In this document: one piece after another, positions 5,091 to 9,750 of the stretch
Numbering within the stretch: position 1 is the stretch's first letter
Layout: every line of letters begins with the position of its first letter
Notes under the pieces: generated by a model
The model's input: the letters and a program-made list of their open reading frames with translations, nothing else
Told to the model about the DNA's origin: nothing
Databases searched by the model: none
Origin: Deltaproteobacteria bacterium
GTDB lineage: Bacteria > Desulfobacterota > Anaeroferrophillalia > Anaeroferrophillales > Tharpellaceae
DNA: 10,274 nucleotides
NCBI GenBank assembly: GCA_030595135.1
Contig: JAUVDU010000031.1
Location: 1-10,274 of the forward strand
Direction: 5' to 3'
Translations under genes and position numbers: made by a program

Positions 5091-5110
5091 GAATATATGC
5101 AATGAAAAAA

Positions 5111-5240
5111 GTAAAAATTCGGATAACCCGTAAATTCAGGGTACACAATCCCGATTTCCTGTGGAGAATCAGGTTATGTCCCCAAAATTTGCTAAAATCC
5201 ATCAATATTCGGTGCTTTTTTACTTACGCCGAATATTTAC
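5111..5240 (-). mobile_element. MITE copy A (IS66-like ends), 130 bp, with 8-bp target duplication
   Basis: The element starts GTAAAAATTCGGA and ends with a sequence whose complement is GTAAATATTCGGC, an imperfect terminal inverted repeat. It is flanked by perfect direct repeats TGAAAAAA at 5103-5110 and 5241-5248. Read on the minus strand it aligns without gaps to copy B (6047-6176) at about 85% identity by hand. It has the same internal hairpin: arms 5130-5145 and 5177-5192. No protein is encoded. It sits just upstream of the promoter region of the minus-strand operon and downstream of the glycine-rich gene. GTAA ends and 8-bp duplications are the signature of the IS66 family, so it is probably a non-autonomous derivative mobilised in trans; the family assignment is inference. 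Confidence 0.9.
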
Positions 5241-5261
5241 TGAAAAAATAGCTGCAACTAT

Positions 5262-5306
5262 TCCTCCTCCATCTGTGATCCTTTTAAGACCACGGATGGA
5301 GGAGGA
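5262..5306. repeat. Long inverted repeat (16-bp arms, 13-base loop)
   Basis: TCCTCCTCCATCTGTG (5262-5277) pairs with 5291-5306, whose complement is TCCTCCTCCATCCGTG, so 15 of 16 positions match. The loop is 13 bases. No T-run follows the stem directly on either strand, so it is not a standard intrinsic terminator. It lies 3' of the glycine-rich gene and next to MITE copy A, and may form the end of that gene's transcript. Confidence 0.75.
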
Positions 5307-5312
5307 GGGAGG

Positions 5313-5384
5313 CTGTCCGGGAAGGTGTAATTTTTTCGAAATAACGATGATTAGTTGAGGAGAAGAGGGGCCTCCCTCGGACAG
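5313..5384. repeat. Second, imperfect inverted repeat downstream of the glycine-rich gene
   Basis: CTGTCCGGGAAGG (5313-5325) is matched by 5371-5384, whose complement is CTGTCCGAGGGAGG. The core CTGTCCG is perfect and the arms differ by one inserted base and one mismatch. The spacer is 45 bases. Together with the 5262-5306 stem it makes the 27-base 3' flank of the glycine-rich gene (5384 to its stop at 5411) lead straight into a strongly structured region. The remainder of 5241-5410 holds no gene that I can see. Confidence 0.5.
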
Positions 5385-5410
5385 TCTTCTTAGAGCTGTT
5401 AGTTTAACTT

Positions 5411-5917
5411 TTATTCAGTAACCAGAGGGCAGATTCCAGTGCCATTGCAGGTTCCAGTGCCGCCACCGCCGCCGGCACCAGCACCACCTTGTCCCCGCCA
5501 GGACGGACGGCCGTCTTCGTCGCGCAAATCTACGGTGATGTCTTCGCCGTCGGCGATAATGATGGTTAGACTGACAGCAATTAAGCGGGATGTACCATCA
5601 CTGAGGGTGACTTCGACGACATCAATCTCAACTTCGTCACTAACTGCTGGTTTGAGCACCTCGATGCTGTTCCAGAACCCTAAAGGACCCATGCCATAGA
5701 CGGTTATAAGTTCATCACCGTTATCAACGATCAAGCCGGAGCCCGAAATTCCGGCATCGGTAACGAATCCTTCGATAGTACCTGCCGGGACAGCATCAAG
5801 CATTAAGCCGCCGCCTGTTCTTGCCCCAGCTCCTGCGCCGTTGCGAGCCCAAAGTGAAGTGTTGCAAAGAAGCCCGAAAACCATAACCAGGGTGATCATT
5901 AAAATACTTTTTTTCAT
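5411..5917 (-). CDS. Secreted glycine-rich protein, conserved hypothetical
   Basis: From ATG at 5917 the protein has 168 residues. A signal peptide (MKKSILMITLVMVFG, probable cleavage after LWA at 23-25) is followed by a Gly/Ala-rich linker, then a beta-rich core (about 45-130) with VYGMGPLGFWNSIEV (73-87), and the segment DLRDEDGRPSWR (130-141). The tail is nearly all glycine with two cysteines (C157, C163), which could form a disulfide. From memory, similar small secreted proteins with a 'VYGxGP..W.S..V..P' core and 'LRD..G.P.WR' end occur in Desulfuromonas- and Geobacter-like bacteria, none with a function known to me. Ribosome site GGAG (5924-5927) sits 7 bases before this ATG; the in-frame ATG at 5932 has none. 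It stands alone, between MITE copies A and B. Confidence 0.82.
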   Translation of the reverse strand: MKKSILMITLVMVFGLLCNTSLWARNGAGAGARTGGGLMLDAVPAGTIEGFVTDAGISGSGLIVDNGDELITVYGMGPLGFWNSIEVLKPAVSDEVEIDVVEVTLSDGTSRLIAVSLTIIIADGEDITVDLRDEDGRPSWRGQGGAGAGGGGGTGTCNGTGICPLVTE

Positions 5918-5964
5918 TTTTTTCTCCGTCATAAAAGTTTTTGTAAATTGTTGTCAGACAGGGG

Positions 5965-5980
5965 AGCAATCCCCCTCCCT
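5965..5980 (-). promoter_or_regulatory. Candidate sigma-54 (-24/-12) promoter for the glycine-rich gene
   Basis: Read on the minus strand, 5980-5965 gives AGGGAGGGGGATTGCT. GG and GC are exactly 10 bases apart, and 9 of the 12 specified positions of TGGCACG-N4-TTGCW match. Transcription would begin near 5954, about 37 bases before the ATG at 5917. The same stretch can also form a small hairpin, GGGGA-gcaa-TCCCC (5961-5974). A sigma-54 activator is encoded nearby at 625-1956. Confidence 0.35.
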
Positions 5981-6009
5981 CACGCTTTTGAGTGATGTTG
6001 TTAAAAGCA

Positions 6010-6023
6010 TGTCCGGCCGGACA
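6010..6023. promoter_or_regulatory. 14-bp perfect palindrome upstream of the glycine-rich gene, possible operator
   Basis: TGTCCGGCCGGACA is a perfect 14-bp palindrome in otherwise AT-rich intergenic DNA, 93 bases upstream of the ATG at 5917 and about 60 bases upstream of the start point predicted from the candidate sigma-54 promoter. Position and symmetry suit a dimeric DNA-binding protein. No second perfect copy was seen in the window; the half-site CTGTCCG also occurs in the inverted repeat at 5313-5384. Confidence 0.4.
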
Positions 6024-6046
6024 AGTTGTGATGAATTAAAGATGAC

Positions 6047-6176
6047 GTAACTATTCAGCGTAAGTAGGAAAGCACTTAATTTTGATGGATTTCAGTGAAT
6101 TCTGGGGACATAACCTGATTCTCCGAAGAAAATCGGGATTGTGTCCCCTGAATTTACGGGTTAGCTGAATAGTTAC
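6047..6176 (+). mobile_element. MITE copy B (IS66-like ends), 130 bp, perfect 13-bp terminal repeats and 8-bp target duplication
   Basis: GTAACTATTCAGC (6047-6059) and its exact complement GCTGAATAGTTAC (6164-6176) bound the element. Direct repeats AAGATGAC at 6039-6046 and 6177-6184 flank it. Inside, GTGAATTCTGGGGACA (6095-6110) pairs with 6142-6157 at 14 of 16 positions, and a second stem CCTGATT / AATCGGG (6114-6120 / 6131-6137) closes on a 10-base loop. It is the best preserved copy, which suggests it is the youngest. It encodes nothing. Its orientation is opposite to copy A and the same as copy C. Confidence 0.93.
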
Positions 6177-6690
6177 AAGATGACATCACATGTTTCGTTT
6201 CTATGTTTTCTTGTTTAGCGATTGTCGTGCCAATACTAAAAAAATAAAAAATCCTGGTTTTGTAGCAATTTACTAAGTCTTGACCGGAAAACAGACGACA
6301 ATCACAGTAATCTTTCGACAATTTTGTCGAATCAAGAAAAATCATGCCGACGTAGAGAAAATTAATAGGCTTTTACGAATGAAATTTCACTTAAAATGGT
6401 CAAAACTTTTTTGACTACGAAATAATACAAAAAGTTTTTATCCGTGTTATCCGTGCCATTCGTGGTTATTTTTTTATTTCTTTTAACCACGGATTACACG
6501 GAGAAGAAAATCTTTTTGCTTCCGGCAAAGCCGGGTTGTGATTTATGATAATTGGTAACTTGTTTATATTGTAGGTAATCTTTTTTTGTTTTTTTTTAGG
6601 GCATTTTATGTTATGCAGGTCATCGGATCAAATAGTGTTATAGAACTATGTAGATATTTTGACTTGAAGGCAAATTCGAAAAGCAATTTT
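6177..6690. other. AT-rich intergenic region without a convincing gene
   Basis: No reading frame here looks coding. A 63-codon minus-strand frame (6154-6345) runs into the MITE, has no family features and is rejected. The region holds the inverted repeat at 6449-6503, a short GTCAAAA/TTTTGAC palindrome at 6399-6415, a CCGGC-aaa-GCCGG hairpin (6522-6534) and, further right, the promoter of the SUMF1-fold gene. Base composition is much more AT-rich than in the genes on either side. Confidence 0.6.
6449..6503. repeat. Interspersed-type inverted repeat built from CCGTG / CACGG units
   Basis: ATCCGTG (6449-6455) and GTGGTTA (6462-6468) are mirrored by TAACCAC (6484-6490) and CACGGAG (6497-6503). 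Two tandem ATCCGTG-like units precede the left arm (6440-6455). The text 'AACCACG...CACGGATAACACGGAT' on the complementary strand resembles a short intergenic repeat that I recall from many unrelated bacterial genomes. It codes for nothing. Confidence 0.55.
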
Positions 6691-6720
6691 TTGACGTACT
6701 TGAGTTCTAGAAAATATAAG
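6691..6720 (+). promoter_or_regulatory. Likely sigma-70 promoter of the SUMF1-fold gene
   Basis: TTGACG (6691-6696) and TATAAG (6715-6720) are 18 bases apart, each with 5 of 6 consensus bases. Transcription would begin near 6727, giving a leader of about 23 bases that still contains the ribosome site GGAG (6734-6737), 12 bases before the ATG at 6750. Confidence 0.5.
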
Positions 6721-6749
6721 CCTGTGAAAAATCGGAGAGTGTTAAGCAA

Positions 6750-7646
6750 ATGAAAAAAACTGTTTTGCAAATCTCTTTTTTACCTTTTTTGTGGTTGTGC
6801 CTGATGCTGGTTGCGGTTCCGACGGCATCAGCCGAACCCGCTTTTATCGATCCTGTGACTGCTATGGAGTTTGTCTGGGTGCCGTCGGGCACTTACCAGA
6901 TGGGACAGACGAAGTCGGAGAAAGAGGATTTGATCAAAGTGATGGGGCGCGATAAATACGAAAAATATTGTGCCGAGGAGTTACCTCGTCATCAGGTCAT
7001 AGTTGACGGTTTCTGGATGGGGCAGTACGAGGTGACAAATGCCCAGTATCGGCAATTTAAGTTGGCTCATGACAGCAAATCGTACGCAGGGCACTCATTG
7101 AATAGTAATAAACAGCCGGTGGTTGAGGTCTCCTGGGAAGATGCGGTTGCTTATGCTCAATGGTTGTCGGCTAAAAGTAAGAGAAAATTTCGCCTGCCGA
7201 CTGAGGTCGAATGGGAGTATGCCTGTCGGGCCGGGACGACCACGGTTCGTTATTGGGGTGATGATGAGAACTTAGCTTGTCGCCACGCGAATGTCGCCGA
7301 CCAGACGGCCAAGCAGGAGTGGCCAAAATGGAGAGCACATGATTGTGATGATGGTTTTATCGTGACCGCCCCAGTGGGCAGCTTTCAGCCCAACGATTTT
7401 GGTCTTTACGATATGCTGGGTAATGTCTGGGAGTGGTGTTCTGATTGGTATGGTGAGAATTATTACAAAGAGAGCCCGGAGAAAAATCCGCAGGGTGTTG
7501 ATTCGGGTACTTATCGAGTTGCGCGTGGTAGTTGTTGGGATAATCCGTCACGGTTTGTGCGTTCGGCCAGTCGCAATCGACGCCGACCTGATAATCGCGG
7601 CTACGCCCTCGGGTTCCGGTTGGTGGCTTCAAATGTGTCGCCTTAA
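6750..7646 (+). CDS. Exported SUMF1-fold protein (formylglycine-generating-enzyme-like), probably not a sulfatase activator
   Basis: The protein has 298 residues with a Sec signal peptide (basic MKK start, hydrophobic 5-22, cleavage after ASA at 26-28). The remainder is one SUMF1/FGE domain: FVWVPSGTYQMG (41-52), YEVTNAQYRQF (93-103), VSWEDAVAYAQWLS (127-140), RLPTEVEWEYACRAG (148-162), YDMLGNVWEWC (220-230), RVARGSCW (256-263) and LGFRLV (287-292). True formylglycine-generating enzymes have a C-x4-C copper site just after the GGS motif. Here that stretch reads SCWDNPSRFVRSASRN and the pair is absent, so aerobic sulfatase-type Cys oxidation is unlikely. Family relatives without the cysteines serve as binding or accessory domains. 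No sulfatase gene is nearby. MITE copy C follows the stop directly: before that insertion the next gene would have begun 2 bases after this TAA. Confidence 0.9.
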   Translation: MKKTVLQISFLPFLWLCLMLVAVPTASAEPAFIDPVTAMEFVWVPSGTYQMGQTKSEKEDLIKVMGRDKYEKYCAEELPRHQVIVDGFWMGQYEVTNAQYRQFKLAHDSKSYAGHSLNSNKQPVVEVSWEDAVAYAQWLSAKSKRKFRLPTEVEWEYACRAGTTTVRYWGDDENLACRHANVADQTAKQEWPKWRAHDCDDGFIVTAPVGSFQPNDFGLYDMLGNVWEWCSDWYGENYYKESPEKNPQGVDSGTYRVARGSCWDNPSRFVRSASRNRRRPDNRGYALGFRLVASNVSP

Positions 7647-7653
7647 ATATGAT

Positions 7654-7785
7654 GTAACTGCCCAGCGACAGGGTGTTTCGTATCTTATTTGAGATGAATT
7701 TCAGGGTAATCTGGGGGCATAACCTGATTCTTCGCAGGAAATCAGGATTGTGTACCATGATTATCCGGGTTCGCTGAGCAGTTGC
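7654..7785 (+). mobile_element. MITE copy C (IS66-like ends), 132 bp, inserted at the start codon of the methyltransferase gene
   Basis: Terminal repeats GTAACTGCCCAGC (7654-7666) and GCTGAGCAGTTGC (7773-7785) match at 11 of 13 positions. Perfect direct repeats AATATGAT flank it at 7646-7653 and 7786-7793. The internal CCTGATT / AATCAGG stem is perfect. The body is clearly related to copies A and B but more diverged, so it may be older. The left duplication begins with the last base of the SUMF1-fold gene's TAA, and the right one contains the ATG (7789-7791) of the next gene. Confidence 0.88.
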
Positions 7786-7788
7786 AAT

Positions 7789-8946
7789 ATGATTTCAGTC
7801 GTTATTGAAAAATATGCGCCGCCGGGAAACGGACTTGGTTTTTATCAGGACAAGGCGGTTTTTGTCCCTCAAACAGCGGTTGGCGATGAGGTTCTGGTAA
7901 GGGTTGAAAAAGAGAAAAAACGCTATATCATCGGGCGCCTTGAGGAGGTTGTAAAACCCGGCTCTAAGCGTCGAAAAGTGCCTTGTCCGCATTATGCAGA
8001 GTGTGGCGGATGCGATCTACTCCATCTCCCTTATCGGGATCAGCTGGAGCTTAAACAGGAGATGTTGGTTCAGGTTCTGGCCGGAGCCGGGATTCAGGCG
8101 GCAGTTAATATGGTTGCCGCACCGAGCGAATTTCATTACCGGCATCGGGCTCTTTTCCGGCGTGATCTGGAGACCGGAGAATTTGGCTTTTTGCGTCGTC
8201 GCAGCCATCAGGTGGCGGTTGTTCCCGACTGCCTGGTTTTAGCTCAGGGTTTGACAAACTTGTTAAAAAAGTTTGCCGTGTCACCGGATTTGCCGAAAAA
8301 AACAACGGCCTGTTACGGTTTGGCAAGTGTCAACGGTGATTTCGCTGCGGCCGCAGATAATGGTCGCAACTATCAAGCGATTCCCGGGATTCCGGAAACT
8401 GTGACCGAAAACTATGGTTTTGGCGATCTTGAACTGGCGGCTTCAGGTTTTGCCCAAGCAAATCCGGCGATAACCCGGCTGATGATCAACGATCTTCGGC
8501 AATATTGCGTCGATGCTCGTGAAGTGGCTGAACTCTATGGCGGTAGCGGCACTTTCTCGTTGCCGTTGGCAACCATTGCCCGGAATCTGACCGTTTACGA
8601 AAGTGATTCAGCGGCCGCCGCCAGAGGCCGCCGCAACGCGGCTCGTAACGGTTTGGAAAATGTTCATGTAGTCAGTGGTAGGGTCGAGAAAAAAGCGTTG
8701 CCCAAAGCTCTCGATACGCTGGTTGTTGATCCTCCGCGTAGTGGCTTGCAACCGGTTATTATCGAAAAAATGGTTAAAAGCCGGGCTGCACAGCTTATCT
8801 ATATCAGCTGTAATCCGGCCACCCTGGCCCGCGATCTCGCCCGTCTCAAAGCTTTTTCTAACGGTTTTACTTTAGATTCACTTAGTGCCTACGACATGTA
8901 TGCCGGTACTACCCACCTTGAAGTCATGGCCGTTCTCAAACGTTAA
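7789..8946 (+). CDS. TrmA/RlmD-family RNA (uracil-5-)-methyltransferase
   Basis: The protein has 385 residues from ATG at 7789. It has an N-terminal TRAM RNA-binding domain (about 1-60), a 4Fe-4S cysteine set (C66, C72, C75, C148) typical of the RlmC/RlmD branch, FAQANP (221-226, with the base-binding Gln223), the SAM motif ELYGGSGTFSLPL (248-260), DPPRSGL (314-320), the nucleophile motif ISCNPATLARDL with C341, and HLE with E378 as general base. Such enzymes methylate U to m5U in 23S rRNA (U747 or U1939 in E. coli) or tRNA; which site cannot be told, as many bacteria have one enzyme of mixed role. All catalytic residues are present. The start codon lies in the right target duplication of MITE copy C. 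No good ribosome site precedes it; an in-frame GTG at 7750 inside the MITE follows AGGA and could add 13 residues. Its stop overlaps the stop of the convergent hypE remnant. Confidence 0.93.
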   Translation: MISVVIEKYAPPGNGLGFYQDKAVFVPQTAVGDEVLVRVEKEKKRYIIGRLEEVVKPGSKRRKVPCPHYAECGGCDLLHLPYRDQLELKQEMLVQVLAGAGIQAAVNMVAAPSEFHYRHRALFRRDLETGEFGFLRRRSHQVAVVPDCLVLAQGLTNLLKKFAVSPDLPKKTTACYGLASVNGDFAAAADNGRNYQAIPGIPETVTENYGFGDLELAASGFAQANPAITRLMINDLRQYCVDAREVAELYGGSGTFSLPLATIARNLTVYESDSAAAARGRRNAARNGLENVHVVSGRVEKKALPKALDTLVVDPPRSGLQPVIIEKMVKSRAAQLIYISCNPATLARDLARLKAFSNGFTLDSLSAYDMYAGTTHLEVMAVLKR

Positions 8947-9386
8947 CAAATTCTTGGTACCAGATCACCGCTCGGTTGATCAATAATGCGTTCTCCCCCG
9001 ATCAGCGTTTTCATCGTGACTCTTCCCGTTGGCTGATTTTCATCACGAACCCGGCCGATAATTGCGGCATTTTTTCCTAAGGGATCATCTTGCATGATCT
9101 CCAGAACTTTTTTGGCCTCGTCAGCCGGACAAAAGAGCAGCATTTTCCCCTCATTAGCTAGAAACAGAGGTTCCAATCCGTAGATTTCAGCAAAACCGCG
9201 AACCTCCTCTTTGACCGGAAGAGACTTTTCCTCAATTTGCAGATGGGTTCGAGATTGTTCGGCGAGTTCGGCCAGAACGCCGCCGGCACCGCCTCGGGTG
9301 GCATCCCGTAGACTGTGAATGTTGACAGAGTTTTTCTGTAATTTTTGTACCAGATGGTTCAAGGCGGAGGTAAGGCGACCACCACC
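8943..9386 (-). pseudogene. hypE: HypE (hydrogenase maturation) C-terminal remnant, joined in frame to a transposase fragment
   Basis: About 143 residues match the C-terminal part of HypE, which is normally about 330-340 residues: LRDATRGGAGGVLAEL, LPVKEEVRGFAEIYGLEPLF, LANEGKMLLFCPADEA, DPLGKNAAIIGRV, and the family's invariant end PRIC. In intact HypE the final Cys carries the thiocarbamate/thiocyanate used to make the CN ligands of [NiFe] hydrogenase. The whole N-terminal ATP-binding half is missing. Instead, the frame continues upstream without a stop into transposase sequence; the join lies near residues 80-85 of the chimeric frame, about 9374-9386, at a glycine run. The frame opens with GTG at 9626 and is 227 codons long. 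It is expected to be non-functional. Selenophosphate synthetase shares the fold, but the PRIC end settles it as HypE. Confidence 0.85.
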
Positions 9387-9750
9387 GCCGTTACCTTCAG
9401 TTAAGAAGATCTTTTGCGGAATAGAGCAGTTAATATTAAACCCAATATGAACTTTTGCCTTCTTTGCCCCTTTGCGATAGTCGGCCCAGACCATGGAGAG
9501 AACTGAATCGATCAGTGAACCATCAATAGCAACAAGGTCTCCCAGCTCAGAAAACTCTTTTAGGTCTCTGATTGCTCGCTTGTTTAAACAGATTTTGAAA
9601 AACGTGTAAAAATTGTTCGAGGCCACGTTCGTTTAGTGAATCAAAAAAAGTACTTTTACCGATTCCTCCACTGGATATTAATAGTAAAGTATGCCGTGTA
9701 TAATTTTTTTGCCAAGCAGTTTGGTCAACGTTATGGTTGCGGGTTTTTAC
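9387..9750 (-). pseudogene. IS4-type DDE transposase fragment with a frameshift
   Basis: Two minus-strand frames together give one continuous transposase segment. Frame one (9750-9547) reads ...RHTLLLISSGGIGKSTFF, NERGLEQFLHVFQNLFKQAS and ends at TGA 9547-9549. Frame two continues FSELGDLVAIDGSLID, LSMVWADYRKGAKKAKVH, GFNINCSIPQKIFLTEGNG. The join is explained by one extra A (T on the plus strand) in the run at 9558-9561. The motif AIDGS holds the first catalytic Asp of the DDE triad; the other two catalytic residues and the whole C-terminal half are gone, replaced by HypE sequence. The N-terminus is also lost or diverged beyond a TAG at 9751-9753. I recognise this from IS4-family transposases of Desulfobacterota. 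No terminal inverted repeats could be found. Confidence 0.8.

What the first reader, a model, noticed from the sequence alone, without database searches (positions are those of the whole stretch)
5103..7793. Three copies of one 130-132 bp MITE within 2.7 kb, each with an intact 8-bp target duplication
Copies A (5111-5240, minus), B (6047-6176, plus) and C (7654-7785, plus) share GTAA-type terminal inverted repeats and an internal hairpin. Each is flanked by a different perfect 8-bp direct repeat: TGAAAAAA, AAGATGAC and AATATGAT. This shows three independent insertions. By established knowledge, GTAA ends and 8-bp duplications are typical of IS66-family elements. No transposase is inside them, so they must be moved in trans. 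Divergence among copies (A to B about 85% identical by hand, C less) suggests insertions of different ages.
Basis: partly seen in the sequence, partly recalled or inferred. Interest (0 to 1): 0.75.

Follow-up and report, generated by a model that had tools for sequence, protein, structure and literature searches.

The report
IS66 MITEs carrying REP-like palindromes
Three short jumping DNA pieces in this uncultured sea-floor bacterium belong to a large family with the ends of a known transposon (IS66), and each carries inside it a second, mobile-looking palindrome that also occurs on its own in a related genome, so one kind of mobile DNA seems to ride inside another.

Summary
In detail: three 130-132 bp copies, each with a perfect 8-bp duplication. 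The genome (a MAG of the genus Candidatus Tharpella) holds about 70 cores, 52 of 70 with both ends. Of 60 TIR-paired elements, 31 have an exact 8-bp duplication (cross-element control 0). A related genome holds the empty site of copy C. The ends are IS66 ends: 17 of 17 bases match the end of an IS66 fragment in this genome, and the 13-bp end matches named ISGst1, which has an 8-bp duplication too. The IS66 MITE reading is therefore supported and, alone, fairly ordinary.

New beyond the finding: the internal hairpin looks like a separable module with GGGGACA...TGTCCCC feet. It occurs without IS66 ends, most clearly in one relative (5 of 12 cores). Two other palindromes with GGGG(A/T)CA feet sit between the same ends. 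14 of 25 Y1 (HUH) transposase loci tested have matching inverted GGGG(A/T)C ends (control 0 of 2000), the printed 'TIRYT' signature. I read the elements as IS66-mobilised MITEs carrying TIRYT/REP-like palindromes. No Y1 gene bracketed by this exact palindrome was found (0 of 35), so that half is inference.

The parts
5103..5110 (.). left 8-bp target duplication of copy A (TGAAAAAA)
5111..5240 (-). MITE copy A, 130 bp, decayed TIRs
   Evidence: 15 of 130 differences from the consensus of 37 copies
5139..5183 (-). palindromic core of copy A (GGGGACATAACC..GTGTACCC); with outer arms 5131-5191
5241..5248 (.). right 8-bp target duplication of copy A
6039..6046 (.). left 8-bp target duplication of copy B (AAGATGAC)
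6047..6176 (+). MITE copy B, 130 bp, intact TIRs GTAACTATTCAGC / GCTGAATAGTTAC
   Evidence: 4 of 130 differences from consensus
6104..6148 (+). palindromic core of copy B (GGGGACATAACC..TTGTGTCCCC); with outer arms 6096-6156
6177..6184 (.). right 8-bp target duplication of copy B
7646..7653 (.). left 8-bp target duplication of copy C (AATATGAT); overlaps the last base of the stop codon of the FGE-sulfatase-domain gene 6750-7646 and holds an ATG
7654..7785 (+). MITE copy C, 132-bp subfamily
   Evidence: empty site in G001:C239
7713..7757 (+). palindromic core of copy C; with outer arms 7705-7765
7786..7793 (.). right 8-bp target duplication of copy C; holds the probable ATG (7789-7791) of the (uracil-5)-methyltransferase-like gene
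   Evidence: choice of start codon is mine

Best explanation
The three copies are non-autonomous IS66-family MITEs. Their shared ends (GTAACTATTCAGC) let an IS66 DDE transposase supplied in trans insert them, making the 8-bp duplications. The payload between the ends is a REP/TIRYT-like palindrome (feet GGGGACA / TGTCCCC) that behaves as a module: it also occurs alone, and other palindromes with the same kind of foot sit between the same IS66 ends. So IS66 ends appear to have captured, more than once, palindromes of the kind that bracket Y1 (HUH) transposase genes in this lineage, and carried them round the genome. Shown here: the anatomy, the TSDs, an empty site, the identity of the ends with IS66 ends, cores with and without IS66 ends. 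Inferred: active IS66 transposition, capture, and any past or present handling of the core by a Y1 enzyme.
For: IS66 side: 31 of 60 exact 8-bp TSDs in own elements and 37 of 68 in relatives; other lengths from 4 to 11 bp give at most 3 of 60 and 2 of 68. IS66 fragment C203 ends, about 30 bp after its stop, in a TIR identical for 17 bases. A 475-aa IS66 transposase gene in G014 lies between GTAACTATTCAGC and GTAACTATTCACC ends. ISGst1 has GTAACTATTCAGC / GTAACTATTCACC ends and an 8/8 TSD. Empty site of C. Module side: of 70 cores in the G000 stretches 52 have both TIRs, 16 one, 2 none; of 12 in the G006 stretches 5 have none, 6 one, 1 both. Five 67-bp elements equal the 130-mer minus the 63-bp core and are nearest to four different 130-mers. 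IS66-ended elements of 152, 188, 189 and 166 bp carry other palindromes with GGGGTCA..TGACCCC or GGGGACA..TGTCCCC feet. 14 of 25 Y1 loci have matched inverted GGGG(A/T)C ends, control 0 of 2000, agreeing with the printed TIRYT consensus GGGGWSAS. Of 24 copies without a right IS66 end, 18 stop at consensus 105-113, around the hairpin foot. The outer core arms covary: 53 double-change cells against 13.6 in shuffles.
Against: No Y1 gene bracketed by GGGGACAyAAyCC was found among 35 Y1 matches in 22 genomes, so a cognate enzyme is unproven; the shared signature is about 7 bases. No complete IS66 is assembled in the own genome, only a contig-edge fragment, and only 3 of 10 IS66 matches in 22 genomes show this TIR at an end. 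L249 has no TSD directly at its TIRs. The 67-bp elements have ATTT/GAATTT direct repeats at the deletion ends, so plain slippage explains them. TIR-less cores could be decayed MITEs: of the 2 in G000, L051 keeps part of a MITE arm. The pile-up at the hairpin foot is modest (about 11 of 24 expected if spread evenly over 103-121, my arithmetic). All genomes of the lineage used are fragmented MAGs.
Confidence: 0.7

Rival explanations
1. Plain IS66 MITE: the hairpin is simply this MITE family's own filler, perhaps kept as a transcription terminator or RNA structure, and the resemblance of its feet to Y1-transposase ends is coincidence. Cores without IS66 ends are decayed copies.
For: Most cores in the own genome keep both IS66 ends (52 of 70). 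In G008 and G011 the 14 best-scored matches each (a capped list, of 44 and 112 candidates) are full or nearly full length. No cognate Y1 gene was found. Strong fold (z -8.0 for copy B). Some TIR-less cores show remnants of MITE arms (L051, L117).
Against: By eye the five TIR-less cores of G006 show no trace of the MITE arms, and two of them (L194) have iterated AGAATTT-type tails. Two other palindromes with GGGG(A/T)CA feet sit between the same IS66 ends. 14 of 25 Y1 loci have such ends against 0 of 2000.
Confidence: 0.22
2. Two-transposase element: a Y1 enzyme still acts on the core, excising it (giving the 67-bp form) and nicking at the hairpin foot (giving the truncated copies), while IS66 moves the whole. 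This is a stronger form of the best explanation, not exclusive of it.
For: The same 63-bp loss is seen in five separate 67-bp elements nearest to four different 130-mers. 18 of 24 right-truncated copies stop around the hairpin foot. G000 has two Y1 matches, one of them short.
Against: Direct repeats at the deletion ends allow simple slippage. No cognate Y1 found. Breaks at the foot also follow from replication stalling at hairpins. Copies broken inside the palindrome could not be seen by the pattern used, and left-side ends mix truncation with divergent subfamilies.
Confidence: 0.2
3. Assembly or binning artefact of a metagenome (repeat collapse, chimeric contigs).
For: The genome is a 415-contig MAG, 70.5% complete.
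Against: TSDs match within elements and not between them; an orthologous empty site exists; similar copies occur in other MAGs.
Confidence: 0.01

Closest known systems
IS66 family with a single transposase gene (ISGst1 in NC_010420; G014 element L249)
   Same: TIR GTAACTATTCAGC / GTAACTATTCACC; 8-bp TSD in ISGst1; IS66 transposase by Pfam and NCBIfam for L249
   Different: The window's elements are 130-132 bp, without any gene, and carry a palindrome
TIRYT / TIRtron repeats (PMC3733652, section 16 and passages read; subclass 2.1 in PMC6006769, section 20 and passages read)
   Same: GGGGWSAS-type feet; inverted; dispersed in the genome
   Different: Here mostly inside IS66-ended MITEs; no Y1 gene bracketed by the same sequence found
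REPINs (PMC3116915, passages read)
   Same: Two inverted units forming one hairpin in many dispersed copies; that paper also reports excisions
   Different: No GTAG foot (by eye); here between IS66 ends with TSDs
Other bacterial MITEs tied to an IS (MITECca01/IS982 in PMC9769881; MITEPye1/IS1182 in PMC11578231; passages read)
   Same: Short, no gene, TIRs of an IS family
   Different: Other IS families; no REP-like module mentioned in the passages I saw

Membership tests
IS66-family MITE | TIRs equal to those of an IS66 element in the same genome | tested here: met
   17 of 17 bases with the end of the IS66 fragment C203; only one end of that IS is assembled
IS66-family MITE | 8-bp target duplication | tested here: met
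   31 of 60 exact in own elements, 37 of 68 in relatives
IS66-family MITE | short and without a transposase gene | tested here: met
   the 60 own elements are 67-188 bp, too short for a transposase gene
IS66-family MITE | complete IS66 partner in the same genome | tested here: inconclusive
   only a contig-edge fragment in the 70.5% complete MAG
IS66-family MITE | moves in trans by an IS66 transposase | not testable with these tools
   needs a transposition assay
TIRYT-type (GGGGWSAS) repeat, for the core | GGGGWSAS motif at the feet | tested here: met
   GGGGACAC on one arm; the other arm reads GGGGACAT, which misses the last position
TIRYT-type (GGGGWSAS) repeat, for the core | brackets a Y1 transposase gene | tested here: not met
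   0 of 35 Y1 matches in 22 genomes; so the core is not filed as a member
TIRYT-type (GGGGWSAS) repeat, for the core | dispersed independently | tested here: met
   cores without IS66 TIR: 5 of 12 in the G006 stretches; 2 of 70 in G000, one of these with a MITE-arm remnant
classical GTAG REP/REPIN | GT[AG]G tetranucleotide at the hairpin foot | tested here: not met
   the foot reads mostly GTAA, GTGA or GCAA in the 57-row alignment (by eye)

The most novel reading that the evidence does not exclude
A chimeric miniature element served by two unrelated transposition chemistries. IS66 DDE transposase moves the whole 130-bp unit with 8-bp duplications, while a Y1/HUH enzyme recognises the inner palindrome, excises it exactly (67-bp form) and nicks at its foot (copies that stop at the palindrome edge). 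IS66 ends act as a general shuttle that has picked up several different GGGG(A/T)CA palindromes.
Probability: 0.2. Interest if true: 0.75.

Novelty: new variant of a known kind. Interest (0 to 1): 0.5.

Why it matters
How REP-like palindromes spread is poorly understood (so says the abstract of PMC8266576, seen in the listing). A lineage in which such palindromes ride between DDE-transposon ends, with clean duplications and an empty site, offers another route that can be tested in closed genomes and in the laboratory. It also shows an IS66-ended miniature element in about 70 copies.

Tried and rejected
A Y1 gene between the two inverted solo cores of G006:C8: none seen. A cognate Y1 gene for GGGGACAyAAyCC: not found in 22 genomes, nor in the 30 loci of the phylum scan. 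Rfam: no match in the window at gathering scores. Plasmids and phages with copy B: no match. The 67-bp form as ancestor of the 130-bp form: not favoured, because 67-mers are nearest to four different 130-mers and have direct repeats at the junction. The 347-bp TIR pair in L024 looks spurious and was left out.

A first count of right-truncated copies (20 of 26 at the hairpin foot) used a poor rule for orientation and took two intact relatives' copies (L098, L154) for truncated ones; the recount is 18 of 24 (5 of 9 own, 13 of 15 relatives).

The core outside the lineage: the 18-base core pattern hits 8 of 395 phylum genomes: 7 in the host's family (of 13 sampled) and G103, a single hit that by eye is not the palindrome.

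Rows dropped or chosen: elements within 15 bases of a locus end; 8 of 148 cores of other length; 57 of 140 cores aligned, chosen by me for diversity; cores within 95 bases of a locus end. Of 188 TIR hits the first 100 were listed, and 20 stretches were fetched for TIRs away from listed cores, so TIR-only elements are not fully counted. The G006 stretches are on all 12 contigs with the matches scored (14 of 27 candidates scored). The 10 Y1 loci were not in the count, only looked at by motif. Of the TIR-less cores in the named contigs (5 of 77), one lies at a contig edge, three are G006 loci again and one (L117) has a decayed TIR by eye.
Full report
Observation. The window holds three related elements at the stated places, each with a perfect 8-bp duplication. 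The window is contig C183 of a 2.18-Mb, 415-contig, 70.5%-complete MAG. The only Tharpella paper in the library is PMC9213671 (passages seen, where no word beginning with 'transpos' occurs).

Copy number. BLAST with copy B scored 40 of 114 candidates and listed 40 near-full copies, the other 10 rows being the hairpin matching itself backwards. A 21-base core pattern finds 71 places (one, L072, is not the hairpin) and the 13-base TIR 188, with 0 in the reversed controls. In the stretches fetched 60 elements have paired TIRs: 130 bp (37), 129 (9), 67 (5), 132 (2), 134 (2), and one each of 73, 91, 128, 152 and 188. Exact 8-mer duplications flank 31 of 60, with at most one mismatch 42 of 60; exact duplications of 4-6 or 9-11 bp: 0, of 7 bp: 3; left and right flanks of different elements match at 8 bp never. 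In relatives 37 of 68 are exact at 8 bp (cross-element control 0.0007 of pairs). Copy B matches 17 of 59 genomes in the relatives search, own included: all 12 same-genus ones and four others (G014, G018, G020, G029; the last two bits of evidence, G018 and G029, are short matches of 52 and 22 bases).

Empty site. In relative G001 the neighbours of copy C are joined with a single copy of the 8 bases (window AATATGAT, G001 AAAATGAT), the two BLAST pieces overlapping by exactly 8 bases. Before insertion a stop codon and an ATG were two bases apart. The insertion separates them by the MITE, and the right duplication restores an ATG (7789-7791). The choice of start codon is my reading. For A and B no empty site was shown.

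IS66 link. The only IS66 match in the own genome is a contig-edge fragment (C203). About 30 bases past its stop it ends in TTACGCTGAATAGTTAC, identical over 17 bases to the MITE end. In 22 genomes of the lineage there are 10 IS66 matches. Three show the TIR at an end: C203, L249 (both ends, around a 475-aa IS66 transposase gene) and L252 (one end, one mismatch). Seven do not, several of them cut by contig ends. Of six plasmid IS66 copies fetched out of 189 matching records, four have GTAAC-type ends with an 8/8 duplication, among them ISGst1 (GTAACTATTCAGC / GTAACTATTCACC). One (Oceanisphaera) has GTAACTATTCAGC at both ends but no duplication, and one shows no convincing ends. L249 has no duplication directly at its TIRs.

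The core as a module. The hairpin (GGGGACATAACC..GGGATTGTGTCCCC, 45 bp plus 8-bp outer arms) also occurs without IS66 ends within 75 bases (TIR allowed 3 mismatches). In the G006 stretches 5 of 12 cores have no TIR, 6 have one, 1 has both. In G000 it is 2, 16 and 52 of 70; of the two, L054 stops exactly at the palindrome while L051 keeps part of a MITE arm. In named contigs 5 of 77 have none: one at a contig edge, three being G006 loci again, one (L117) with a decayed TIR by eye. Two G006 solo cores (L194) carry iterated AGAATTT-type tails. Of 24 copies lacking the right IS66 end, 18 stop at consensus 105-113, around the hairpin foot: 5 of 9 own, 13 of 15 relatives. If ends were spread evenly over 103-121, about 11 would fall there (my arithmetic), so the excess is modest; copies broken inside the palindrome could not be seen, and left-side ends mix truncation with divergent subfamilies. 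Five 67-bp elements equal the 130-mer minus 63 bp and are nearest to four different 130-mers; an ATTT or GAATTT direct repeat at the junction allows slippage.

Structure. On 57 cores chosen for diversity, 53 cells change on both sides of a pair against 13.6 +/- 2.9 in shuffles, and sliding the partner by 1 to 3 columns drops this to 10-16. 48 of the 53 lie in the outer arm (for example U-A 42, A-U 13), while the GGGGACA feet hardly vary; one G-C pair of the foot is unpaired in 29 of 57. Related rows can inflate such counts, and quasi-palindrome correction can make compensatory changes without selection (recalled). Copy B folds as single-stranded DNA at -28.3 kcal/mol, z -8.0.

What kind of palindrome. 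Y1 (PF01797) matches in 22 genomes number 35 (two of them own). Of the 25, 14 have inverted ends GGGG(A/T)(C/G)(A/G)+7 bases matched with at most 2 mismatches, against 0 of 2000 random intervals in loci L094-L165. Of the other 10, at least L240, L245 and L247 do by eye. The printed name for such genes is TIRYT, with consensus GGGGWSAS (PMC3733652 section 16; PMC6006769 section 20); two papers in the library use the word. L217 also shows the weak C-terminal DnaA-type helix-turn-helix match that the second paper gives for this subclass. IS66-ended elements with other palindromes exist: 152 bp (L079), 188 bp (L076) and 189 bp (L165) with GGGGTCATTGCTGG feet, and 166 bp (L118) with GGGGACACAGCTC..ATATGTCCCC; three of these four have exact 8-bp duplications. 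GGGGTCA palindromes also occur without a TIR within 95 bases in three named contigs (L148, L156, L159; a fourth listed match, L099, is a chance match), and a partial copy with one foot lies next to the own genome's Y1 gene at C137. Against the reading: no Y1 gene is bracketed by the GGGGACAyAAyCC palindrome itself. So the core is not filed as a TIRYT repeat; it looks like one and may work like one.

Distribution. In a sample of 395 phylum genomes the exact core pattern occurs in 8: 7 of the 13 sampled of the host's family, and G103 with one match that is not the palindrome. Plasmids and phages hold no match to copy B.

Print. Searches for REPIN/RAYT/MITE/IS66 (at least 3 of 4 terms; 0 papers), IS66 family+MITE+miniature inverted-repeat (2), REP/MITE/nested/tyrosine transposase (at least 3 of 4; 3) and ISBst12/MITE/non-autonomous/IS66 (at least 3 of 4; 4) showed no IS66 MITE with a REP-like core in what I saw: the listings, and passages of three papers. 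Subscription papers and ISfinder entries were not searched, so IS66 MITEs as such may well be known.

Verdict. The surplus is the nested, exchangeable REP/TIRYT-like palindrome, which makes it a new variant of a known kind. Interest 0.5.

Noticed in passing
7644-7653 and 7786-7793: Copy C lies between a stop codon and an ATG that were two bases apart before insertion; the left duplication's ATG now reads ATG-ATG-TAA into the MITE, so any translational coupling of the two genes should be broken.
   Followed up: partly
5255-5395: Next to copy A: a CCTCCTCCATC..GATGGAGGAGG hairpin and a second pair of inverted segments (GAGGGAGGCTGTCC / CCTCCCTCGGACAG); seen by eye, purpose unknown.
   Followed up: no
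8943-9626: Minus-strand gene for which Pfam shows only the AIRS_C domain; the N-terminal part seems missing (HypE/SelD-like by eye).
   Followed up: no
L194 2487-2576 and 3872-3944: In G006 solo cores have iterated AGAATTTAC or AGAATTT/AATTTCC tails, as if the outer arm were amplified.
   Followed up: partly
L127 2534-2762: A 229-bp element with GTAAATATTCGGC-type ends and an exact 8-bp duplication carries a different repeat payload (tandem and inverted CTTTGTGCC units).
   Followed up: no
L043 238-310 and L052 242-314: In L043 the core lies in the opposite orientation to the MITE arm beside it, and in L052 a right-type arm stands on both sides of the core (by eye).
   Followed up: no
A2 alignment columns 7-13 / 62-68: Outer arms of the core differ between subfamilies on both sides at once while the GGGGACA feet stay nearly fixed; selection, template switching or exchange of outer arms could each explain it.
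   Followed up: partly
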